Shown here: piece after piece, positions 11,701 through 14,010 of the stretch
Numbering within the stretch: position 1 is the stretch's first letter
Layout: every line of letters starts with the position of its first letter
From: Chondrosia reniformis
Lineage: Eukaryota > Porifera > Demospongiae > Chondrillida > Chondrillidae
Reading direction: 5' to 3'
Length of the DNA stretch: 64,000 nucleotides
NCBI GenBank assembly: GCA_947172415.1
Contig: OX359200.1
Coordinates: 1,242,501 to 1,306,500 of the forward strand
Made by a program: the position numbers and the translations under genes
Notes under the pieces: generated by a model
Seen by the model: only the letters and a program-made list of their open reading frames with translations
What the model was told of the DNA's origin: nothing
Database searches by the model: none

Positions 11701-14010
11701 TTTTAAAATAACTGCATTGTTTAAATGTCTTCCTTCAATTTGTCATCATTGGGCCACATCACAAAATGCCACAGAGAAAACAATGGCTACTCAGAGTTGT
11801 GTGCAGGAGACTCTGGTAGACATTGTAGTATAAATAATGAGTTATTCTCAGTGACAAATCACTGGTGGGAAAAGCCAGTAATCCTGTGTATAATTGTGTT
11901 TTCTGCTTAATGATGGTTTAGCTTGAATACTTGTGGTTTTATTATCAACTTGGTCATTCATGCAAAGGTAATGTTAAAGGATGGACAATGGCTCCAATCA
12001 GCAGAGGATCTGACATCTCTCCCACAAAATGTGCAGCGCATTCTTCCAAAGACACTGTTTCCTCCTACGGAGGAGGAAACAGCAGACCTGCACTTGGAGC
12101 GATGGTTAGTCTTATAAAGCACATTTTTAAGAAGCCCATACCTTATTTGTGGATATTGTTACAGTGTGCGAGTTCTTCCCCACTGGCAAGATACTGGAGG
12201 GTTCTTTGTTGCTGTATTACACAAGTCAAAAGAACTTCCCTGGAAAGAGAAACAAAAGGAAAGACCCCAGGATACCAAAGTGGAGACTGATGAATCTCAA
12301 TCAGAGCAGACAGTCACTGACACAAAAGAACAGCCCTCATCCTTAAAAGGAAAAAATAAGAGCCCCTTAGATACTTTGGGAAGGTACTGAGATTTTAAAC
12401 ATCCCTTTCTTCTGACCTACAACTTGTTTATTATTTTCATCAGGCAGGGCTATACTAAGAGAAGGAATTTGGGGTACAAGGAAGACCCTTTTGTGTTCAT
12501 GCAAGAAGAAGATGAAGTGTTGAAGATGATCAAGTAATTGGTCCATTTTCTGCCAAATCAATTTGAGAAAGCACATTTCAATCATAACGCTCCCATTTTA
12601 AGCTTTTTCAATAACAAATATTATTTAGGAGTTCCTATGGGTTTTCTGATGACTTTCCCAACCAGCAGTTACTGACAAGAACTTTGACTGGAAAGAAGAG
12701 AAATGTATACTTTGTATCAAATTTAATCCATAGTTTGACTGTACAGAATGAAAAGGCTGTCAAGGTATTTTATGACTGTATACAACGAGAGGCGACTAAA
12801 TGAGTTGTTTTCCTGTGTTTAAGATTATTAATATAGGCACAAAATCATTTGCAAGATGTACTTGTCGAAAAGCTAGCTGCGATTTCCGCTTGGCACAGGA
12901 AGTAAGTAACCTTATCGGTGCTAAACCACAAGTGTTTTCATTACGTAATCAACTATAACTGACCTGTTGGACGATTTAGCTAAGACTGTACTCACCAGGA
13001 TCATTTCTATAGTACATGTCAAACCTTCGATTCCAACCGAAGGCAACCCTTTAAACCACGATGACGATCAGAAGCATCCCTTCCTGAGCGTGAAGGAGAG
13101 GAGAAGCTCGACCTTCTCGGTTGATGATCGTTCCTCCCTCACCTCGGTGTAGGAGGATGGAAGGGATGCATTCAGAGTGGTTTTTTTTAAAAAAAGAAGA
13201 AATTTTTATTCTATATTGTGAATTATAAGAATACAATAGCTACAGAAAAGCTTAATTCCTACAAAGCTGGAAGCATATTACATAGAAATATGTTATTATA
13301 TGGATATATATGTATACATATTTATTTGAAATTTGAAATGTCTGACGTTCTTGCAGAGTATTCACCACATCCTCCCATACATACACAAGCTGGTTGTCAA
13401 GGCTACAAGGAGTGATCTGGTAACGCTCTTAAAGGTGGGAAATCCTCTCTTCTCTTCTCTCTCCAACGAGGCAGCTCAGAGTTACAAGAGGCTCAGTAAG
13501 TATTCTGGCAGAGTGTATATGTGAGGTATCTCAACCCTTTCTGGTACTACAGGTGTAGGACCTTGTGTAACAGTGTATAATTCTTCTTTGGAGGATAGTC
13601 AGAACTTTGAGATGTGAGACACCATCTGTGGCCTACTATTTATTATCTATTATTTATTTATTTATTTGTTTATCTTTTTAGTTTAGTCACATTCTTACCA
13701 TCTTCACTTTAGAACAGCTCTGTCAACATGGAGGGCCTCACAGAGTGCTCGCCTCTTTGTGACTGAACGTGAAAGAATTCACTATTTGAGTATTCTTGGG
13801 GAGGATATTCCTGATCATTTGTGTTTGACTACACAGAATGTATACGCTGGCAAGACCTCCCTTGATGAAGGCGGAGCTCCTGAAGATGAGCCACAAGAAG
13901 AAATGGATCCTTCCTTGGAAGGTGTTGAAGAGAAGAATGACTTGGATATAAATGAATTGGAGTCTACAAATGAAGAAGAATCGATGGATGCTGACATAAA
14001 CAATTCTTGA
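8768..14010 (+). CDS. NSUN2: RNA cytosine-5 methyltransferase NSUN2
   Basis: Nineteen exons with consistent phases give 763 residues (human 767): 8768-8839, 8923-9134, 9245-9349, 9409-9514, 9578-9649, 10389-10479, 10538-10674, 10841-10899, 11060-11134, 11215-11345, 11552-11625, 11968-12104, 12165-12383, 12444-12533, 12629-12764, 12824-12901, 13357-13495, 13553-13613, 13713-14010. The enzyme makes m5C in tRNA and other RNAs. Visible motifs are a basic N-terminus, the SAM site [31 protein letters not shown], the catalytic-release cysteine in DVPCSGDGT and the nucleophile in STCSLNPIE. The tail is acidic. Intron 5 holds a Tigger-type MITE (9865-10186) and an R2 repeat; intron 16 holds a U3 snoRNA. 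Confidence 0.97.
9865..10186 (+). mobile_element. pogo/Tigger-derived MITE, 322 bp
   Basis: In NSUN2 intron 5. Terminal inverted repeats start cactcaaacgcctctta on the left and are mirrored by taatagaggcgtttgagtg on the right, flanked by TA on both sides as in Tc1/mariner-pogo insertions. The interior keeps a short piece reading [16 protein letters not shown], like the N-terminal helix-turn-helix of Tigger/CENP-B-type transposases. No full transposase is present. Confidence 0.7.
10194..10345 (+). repeat. Dispersed repeat (family R2)
   Basis: In NSUN2 intron 5. It contains the family core aaactcttgtatcctcatcc, tctcact...tttagttc, tataggcctttactctaaag and tgtagcatgtttgaaaatgg. Other copies are at 6455-6600 (partial), 21205-21310, 26450-26650 (minus), 26985-27215, 28970-29165 (minus) and 55345-55570. 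No terminal inverted repeats or Pol III boxes were seen, so the class is unknown. Confidence 0.65.
12982..13180 (+). ncRNA. U3: U3 small nucleolar RNA
   Basis: This lies in NSUN2 intron 16, same strand. The 5' end aagactgtactcacc, followed by ggatcatttctatagta, is the universal U3 box A'/A region that pairs with pre-rRNA. Box B (gagcgtgaag, 13086-13095) and box C (tgatga, 13122-13127) are present. An 11-bp stem forms between 13074-13084 and 13159-13169, and a 5'-domain hairpin sits at 13023-13043. The 3' end, ttcagagtgg, corresponds to the U3 gtctgagtgg end, but the box D core reads caga rather than ctga. A run of eight T follows directly. Length (199 nt) is normal for U3. The box D change leaves open a recent pseudogene. 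Confidence 0.88.

What the first reader, a model, noticed from the sequence alone, without database searches (positions are those of the whole stretch)
12982..13180. U3 snoRNA gene inside an NSUN2 intron, followed by a T8 run
U3 genes of animals usually have their own Pol II snRNA-type promoters. Here a full-length U3 lies in the sense direction in intron 16 of a housekeeping gene, so it could be host-processed or independently driven. Eight T residues follow the 3' end, reminiscent of Pol III termination as used for plant U3. Box A', A, B and C and the 11-bp closing stem are intact, while box D reads caga.
Basis: partly seen in the sequence, partly recalled or inferred. Interest (0 to 1): 0.75.

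Follow-up and report, generated by a model that had tools for sequence, protein, structure and literature searches.

The report
Sponge U3 gene with own promoter, intron-nested
A sponge's U3 gene, whose RNA is needed to make ribosomes, sits inside an intron of another gene but carries the same promoter element as the sponge's spliceosomal RNA genes, so it is probably switched on independently rather than cut out of its host's intron.

Summary
Window 12982-13181 (+) is a full-length U3 snoRNA (Rfam RF00012, 123.6 bits, E 4e-27), sense in a 455-nt NSUN2 intron, with CAGA at box D and eight T at its 3' end. All 23 U1/U2/U4/U5 genes found in this genome carry AACCACAAGTGTTTT-like PSEs with ACCACA at -55 to -57. 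A matrix trained on them, without U3, ranks the U3 upstream site (-57, inside the intron) first of 127,962 window positions. U3 is therefore most likely a nested, independently transcribed gene. The only other U3 found is a copy in a ~1-kb, 98%-identical duplication, with PSE and CAGA, apparently antisense in an NHLRC2-like gene. No CTGA copy was found, so CAGA is probably the working box D; opposite box C' it would replace U.U with U-A in the kink turn. The polymerase is unsettled: PSE spacing looks Pol II-like, while the T8/T6 end, lack of internal TTTT and lack of the local 3' motif look Pol III-like. No expression data were available. The species is inferred to be Chondrosia reniformis.

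The parts
12982..13181 (+). U3 snoRNA gene (C12 copy)
   Evidence: RF00012 123.6 bits, E 4.3e-27; fold z -4.65
12922..12941 (+). PSE-like promoter element TAAACCACAAGTGTTTTCAT, ACCACA at -57 from U3 nt 1
   Evidence: 25.0 bits with a matrix from U1/U2/U4/U5 of the same genome; best of 127,962 window positions (both strands), next 19.4
12902..13356 (+). NSUN2 intron (GTAAGT...TTGCAG), 455 nt, hosting PSE and U3
   Evidence: splice sites and reading frame; spliced exons match Pre-PUA_NSUN2
12824..12901 (+). NSUN2 exon 5' of the host intron
13357..13495 (+). NSUN2 exon 3' of the host intron
12997..13012 (+). box A AGGATCATTTCTATAG
13057..13067 (+). box C' region CACGATGACGA
   Evidence: aligned to the RF00012 consensus
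13086..13095 (+). box B GAGCGTGAAG
13121..13133 (+). box C TTGATGATCGTTC
13173..13176 (+). box D, CAGA instead of CTGA
13181..13188 (+). T8 run at the U3 3' end (T6 in the C11 copy)
13180..13200 (+). GTTTTTTTTAAAAAAAGAAGA, resembles the vertebrate snRNA 3' box (recalled consensus) but with an 8-nt spacer
   Evidence: 0.09% of random window 46-mers match GTTTN0-8AAARNNAGA, a spacer range I chose after seeing the sequence
12320..13316 (+). stretch duplicated onto contig C11 (98.0% identical over 998 aligned columns)

Best explanation
The locus is a functional U3 snoRNA gene nested in the sense direction in an NSUN2 intron. It is transcribed on its own from an snRNA-type promoter whose proximal element (PSE) begins 20 nt after the NSUN2 5' splice site. 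Presumed steps: the snRNA activating complex (SNAPc) binds the PSE and a polymerase starts at A12982. Transcription stops in or soon after the T8/A7/GAAGA stretch. The RNA assembles a box C/D RNP that acts in 18S rRNA processing. NSUN2 transcription runs through the same DNA, and that copy of the sequence is removed with the spliced intron. Independent initiation fits the anatomy: the functional 5' domain with boxes A' and A lies outside the C'/D core, and 5' exonuclease trimming of a debranched intron would be expected to remove it. My preferred polymerase is Pol II (about 0.6, against about 0.3 for Pol III; both are cases of this explanation). Shown here: the gene, its intron, the PSE match and spacing, the second copy, and that no other U3 was found in this assembly. 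Inferred: SNAPc binding, transcription, cap, polymerase and RNA function.
For: ACCACA lies at -55 to -57 in 23 of 23 U1/U2/U4/U5 genes found in this genome, at -61 in the one U6atac and at -57/-58 in the two U3 genes. A matrix from the 18 distinct U1/U2/U4/U5 sites, U3 not included, scores U3 at 25.0 bits, first of 127,962 window positions (next 19.4); the two U6 loci and MRP score at most 0.8. The exact 14-mer ACCACAAGTGTTTT occurs 137 times in 117 Mb, so chance presence within 3 nt of the expected place is about 4e-6 (my arithmetic). U3 scores 123.6 bits with its boxes and a strong fold. Only two U3 genes were found, one inside a duplicate of the other's surroundings. A box A search with up to one mismatch gave four places: the two U3 and two loci with no Rfam match. 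The duplicate lies on the strand opposite to the thioredoxin/NHL-type exons on both sides of it, so introns of that gene could not yield it (that those exons form one gene is inferred).
Against: No expression data. A PSE match is not proof of use. The exact 14-mer also occurs at many places with no known small RNA: of the 30 places read (of 137), 3 are U5 and several look by eye like one dispersed repeat, and cmscan of 20 of them found only one tRNA. The 3' end does not resemble that of the local U1/U2/U4/U5 genes. Box D is non-canonical. The published assembly has BUSCO completeness of 71.1% and primary k-mer completeness of 69.43% (PMC12181767), so a canonical copy could be missing.
Confidence: 0.82

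Rival explanations
1. Pol III (a special case of independent transcription) makes this U3 from the PSE plus a TATA-like element at -28, ending in the T8 run, as for plant U3, giving a U3 without a trimethylguanosine cap.
For: T8 (C12) or T6 (C11) starts at the last base of the Rfam match, while none of 23 U1/U2/U4/U5 genes has a T run there (3 U5 genes have TTTT 11-16 nt further on); U6 has one, U6atac has T6 just inside its Rfam 3' end, RNase P has T5 two bases after its end. U3 has no internal TTTT, unlike 22 of 22 full-length U1/U2/U4/U5 genes (the partial U2 copy L016 also has none). The motif AAAGCAATGAAA found 3' of U1/U2/U4/U5 is not matched (2.8 bits; 21% of 5000 random stretches do as well). 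TATAA at -28 in the C12 copy.
Against: PSE spacing (-57/-58) fits the U1/U2/U4/U5 set (-55 to -57) better than U6atac (-61) or RNase P (-65). TATAA at -27/-28 also occurs in 6 of 23 U1/U2/U4/U5 genes and is changed to TATAG in the C11 U3 copy. Lack of TTTT is seen in 64% of shuffles. 2 of 22 training flanks score 2.9 bits or less on the 3' motif, and the weak U6 copy scores 3.9. MRP has no T run. A vertebrate-type 3' box overlaps the T run. Animal U3 is Pol II-made and trimethylguanosine-capped (recalled).
Confidence: 0.3
2. U3 is released only from the excised NSUN2 intron by debranching and exonuclease trimming, like ordinary intronic guide snoRNAs.
For: Sense orientation in a spliced intron. 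Sponge guide snoRNAs do occur in ribosomal protein gene introns and some are experimentally verified as expressed (PMC3412847, passages).
Against: Own PSE at the right spacing. The functional 5' domain lies outside the C'/D core, so trimming should remove it (inference). The second copy is antisense to the exons around it.
Confidence: 0.05
3. Both copies are pseudogenes and the true U3 is missing from the assembly.
For: Box D reads CAGA in both copies; the published assembly has incomplete BUSCO.
Against: Full-length model match, stems and PSE. Within U3 the copies differ by two base changes plus T-run length; flanks are not clearly more diverged, so this is weak. The genome yields U1, U2, U4, U5, U6, U6atac, MRP and RNase P.
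Confidence: 0.06
4. Dual origin: both the intronic promoter and the host intron contribute mature U3.
For: [quoted passage not shown]
Against: The U3 5' domain would not be expected to survive trimming (inference).
Confidence: 0.07

Closest known systems
Animal U3 snoRNA genes with their own snRNA-type promoters (recalled)
   Same: Full U3 anatomy, and a PSE shared with the U1/U2/U4/U5 genes of the same genome
   Different: Nested sense in a protein-gene intron, box D CAGA, T8 at the 3' end
Plant U3 genes, made by Pol III (PMC2784804 and PMC7671301, passages)
   Same: Own promoter and a T run at the 3' end
   Different: PSE spacing here matches the U1/U2/U4/U5 genes rather than U6atac/RNase P; polymerase not shown
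scaRNA28 in a human TRRAP intron (PMC12150615, abstract and introduction)
   Same: A C/D RNA in an intron with an independent unit whose promoter lies at or just after the exon/intron junction
   Different: scaRNA28 uses an E-box at the junction and also has a host-processed route; here it is a snRNA-type PSE and U3, and nothing has been tested at the bench

Membership tests
U3 snoRNA (RF00012) | Sequence and structure match over the whole model | tested here: met
   123.6 bits against gathering 34, positions 1-219
U3 snoRNA (RF00012) | Boxes A, C', B and C | tested here: met
   alignment
U3 snoRNA (RF00012) | Box D CUGA | tested here: not met
   CAGA in both copies; a single-base variant, and the family score stays far above gathering, so I keep it as a U3 with a variant box
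U3 snoRNA (RF00012) | Nucleolar RNA acting in 18S processing | not testable with these tools
   no expression or binding data
Pol II snRNA-type gene | PSE shared with U1/U2/U4/U5 at the same distance | tested here: met
Pol II snRNA-type gene | 3' motif shared with U1/U2/U4/U5 of this genome | tested here: not met
   2.8 bits, 21% of random stretches reach it; 2 of 22 training flanks score 2.9 or less
Pol II snRNA-type gene | Vertebrate 3' box GTTTN0-3AAARNNAGA (consensus recalled) | tested here: inconclusive
   GTTT and AAARNNAGA present but the spacer is 8 nt (6 in C11); 0 of 23 local U1/U2/U4/U5 genes match AAARNNAGA
Pol III type 3 gene | T run at the 3' end and none inside | tested here: met
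   T8/T6, no internal TTTT
Pol III type 3 gene | PSE spacing and TATA that set Pol III genes apart in this genome | tested here: inconclusive
   Spacing -57 against -61 (U6atac) and -65 (RNase P, not scored with the matrix); U6 and MRP lack this PSE; TATAA also in 6 of 23 U1/U2/U4/U5 genes
Intron-processed box C/D snoRNA | Sense orientation in a spliced intron | tested here: met
Intron-processed box C/D snoRNA | 5' end within a few nt of the box C/D core (recalled) | tested here: not met
   75 nt of U3 precede the C' region at 13057

The most novel reading that the evidence does not exclude
This sponge makes U3 with RNA polymerase III from a PSE-type promoter nested in a Pol II-transcribed gene, so an animal lineage has moved its essential U3 gene to the polymerase used by plants, and it runs on a box D in which the U.U of the kink turn is replaced by a U-A pair.
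Probability: 0.28. Interest if true: 0.75.

Novelty: new variant of a known kind. Interest (0 to 1): 0.5.

Why it matters
It gives a specific sponge snRNA promoter element (AACCACAAGTGTTTT at about -57) and ties U3 to it, which makes the polymerase choice of an early-branching animal directly testable. It also gives a natural case where the only U3 locus found, apart from a recent copy of it, appears to depend on an intron-nested promoter and a non-canonical box D.

Tried and rejected
Looked for other animal U3 genes in public contigs: GGATCATTTCTATAGTAC in viral contigs gave 0; GGATCATTTCTATAGT in genome contigs gave 72 bacterial or archaeal records, and in 0 of 72 did two or more of five further U3 box words lie nearby. 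So conservation of the intronic position in other sponges could not be tested.

Asked whether the PSE word marks other small RNA genes: 30 of 137 places were read and 20 of these 30 scanned with Rfam, giving only a tRNA. The other 107 were not read.

Tried to settle the polymerase from 3' motifs; the result is mixed. A selection test between the two copies has too few differences (20 in about 1 kb; per base 0.010 upstream to 12901, 0.038 in 12902-12981, 0.015 in U3, 0.059 downstream). No comparison of a distal enhancer element was made.

Literature: eight searches on intronic, nested or sponge U3, snRNA PSEs and Pol III U3 listed no paper that, by its title and abstract start, treats an intronic U3 with its own promoter or a sponge U3. 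These lists are partial: 20 of 136 papers were shown, 15 of 21 and 12 of 1,592; one search found 0. The library holds only open-licence PMC papers, so this is not evidence that nothing is in print.

Full report
What is there. One cmscan of the window lists a single RNA at gathering score, U3 at 12982-13181 on the + strand, 123.6 bits and full length. Boxes A, C', B and C and the 11-bp stem are in place, and box D reads CAGA. The RNA folds far better than shuffles (z -4.65, 0 of 200). It sits in an intron of 455 nt (12902-13356). Joining the exons on either side gives a Pfam Pre-PUA_NSUN2 match, and an upstream ORF matches NSUN2 structures.

Where it comes from. The window lies in a genome of 117,379,552 bases in 15 contigs. 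Contigs C11 and C12 are 7,633,987 and 7,521,688 bases. This agrees with chromosomes 11 and 12 (7.63 and 7.52 Mb) of the 14 chromosomes plus mitochondrion of the kidney sponge Chondrosia reniformis (PMC12181767, abstract and the host assembly section; a figure legend there gives 117,390,217 bp, about 11 kb more). The species name is therefore an inference.

The promoter. I fetched the U1 (7), U2 (6), U4 (2), U5 (8), U6 (2, one weak), U6atac (1), MRP (1) and RNase P (1) genes found by Rfam models in the same genome. All 23 U1/U2/U4/U5 genes have a close match to AACCACAAGTGTTTT, with ACCACA at -55 to -57. One of the 23, L016, is a low-scoring U2 copy (54.3 bits) whose promoter is identical to that of L011. 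A matrix from the 18 distinct sites scores the U3 upstream stretch TAAACCACAAGTGTTTTCAT (12922-12941) at 25.0 bits, the best of 127,962 places in the window (both strands), next best 19.4. U3 was not in the training set. The element begins 20 nt inside the intron, with ACCACA 57 nt before U3. U6atac has it at -61. RNase P has ACCACA at -65 and again at -24 (not scored with the matrix). U6 and MRP lack it. So the U3 gene carries its own snRNA-type promoter element within the intron. The exact 14-mer ACCACAAGTGTTTT is not confined to snRNA genes: it occurs 137 times in the genome against 0 for the reversed control; of 30 places read, 3 are U5.

The second copy. A Rfam search and a DNA search of the genome each find two U3 genes. 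The other, on C11, is identical at 198 of 200 positions. It belongs to a copy of window 12320-13316 (98.0% identical over 998 columns) bordered on both sides by TA repeats. The copied piece holds the exon 12824-12901, probably (from reading the frames) one more NSUN2 exon, intron sequence, PSE and U3, so it arose at the DNA level. In L003 it lies on the + strand between minus-strand ORFs: one with thioredoxin-like, AhpC-TSA and NHL matches on one side, one with an NHL match on the other. I read this as antisense in an NHLRC2-like gene; the name is recalled, and that the ORFs are one gene is inferred. A scan for the box A word with up to one mismatch gives these two copies and two other places (control: 1), and those two loci have no Rfam match. 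The U3 genome search scored 48 of 1,037 candidates, so weak pseudogenes could be missed, but a canonical U3 in the assembly should not be.

Box D. Both copies read CAGA. If box C' (GATGA) and box D form the usual tandem G.A/A.G pairs, the changed base lies opposite the U of box C', so U.U becomes U-A at the 3b.3n position (inference). In kink turns a Watson-Crick pair at 3b.3n gives poor folding in metal ions alone, yet the turn still folds when L7Ae protein is added, as shown there for G-C (PMC4382518, abstract and passages). The variant is thus compatible with protein-bound function, and with no CTGA copy found it is probably the working form.

Which polymerase. For Pol III: T8 (C12) or T6 (C11) starts at the last base of U3, and none of 23 U1/U2/U4/U5 genes has a T run there, though 3 U5 genes have TTTT 11-16 nt downstream; U3 has no internal TTTT, whereas 22 of 22 full-length U1/U2/U4/U5 genes do (the partial L016 does not); and U3 lacks the 3' motif AAAGCAATGAAA learned from 22 such flanks with L016 dropped (all). 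Against it: the PSE spacing matches the U1/U2/U4/U5 set; TATAA near -28 is present in 6 of 23 U1/U2/U4/U5 genes and changed in the C11 U3 copy; lack of TTTT is seen in 64% of shuffles; 2 of 22 training flanks score 2.9 bits or less on the 3' motif against 2.8 for U3; MRP, a Pol III gene in other animals (recalled), has no T run in the 149 nt after its end. The stretch GTTTTTTTTAAAAAAAGAAGA resembles the vertebrate 3' box (recalled consensus) with a longer spacer; 0.09% of random stretches match the loosened pattern, which I set after seeing the sequence, and 0 of 23 local U1/U2/U4/U5 genes match its AAARNNAGA part. [quoted passage not shown] I keep Pol II ahead at about 2:1, mostly from recalled knowledge of other animals.

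Host processing. Guide snoRNAs sit in sponge ribosomal protein gene introns and some are verified as expressed (PMC3412847, passages), so that pathway is likely present. U3 is unlike them: 75 nt of functional 5' domain precede the C' region, which 5' trimming would be expected to remove. With the PSE this makes pure host processing unlikely. A mixed origin has one human precedent, scaRNA28 (PMC12150615, abstract and introduction).

Verdict. A real and probably functional U3 gene, with its recent copy the only U3 found in the genome, nested in an intron with its own snRNA-type promoter element and a variant box D. The kind is known; the arrangement and the unresolved polymerase make it worth a bench test.

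Noticed in passing
L004-L016, L021-L028, L031-L032 upstream regions: A uniform PSE AACCACAAGTGTTTT with ACCACA at -55 to -57 in all 23 U1/U2/U4/U5 genes found, also in U6atac at -61; the U6 and MRP genes lack it.
   Followed up: yes
G000, 137 places of ACCACAAGTGTTTT; e.g. L037, L038, L050, L052, L054, L057, L060: The PSE word is far commoner than its reversed control (137 against 0). By eye part of it belongs to a dispersed repeat beginning AAACCACAAGTGTTTTA; five of the seven loci named were scanned with Rfam, without a match.
   Followed up: partly
L003 4200-5193: A 1-kb patch of NSUN2 with U3, bordered by TA repeats on C11; the right flank holds a 134-bp direct repeat, 92% identical.
   Followed up: partly
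L016 (G000:C4:250972-251152): A low-scoring U2 copy (54.3 bits) with the same promoter and start as the intact U2 of L011, about 18 kb away.
   Followed up: no
L029: RNase MRP RNA has a TATA at -30 but neither the PSE nor a T run within 149 nt after its end.
   Followed up: no
window 32496-33196, 37479-38574, 40432-41255, 62618-63061: Repetitive stretches that stay open as repeated peptides in more than one frame (ORF list; no tandem-repeat program was run).
   Followed up: no
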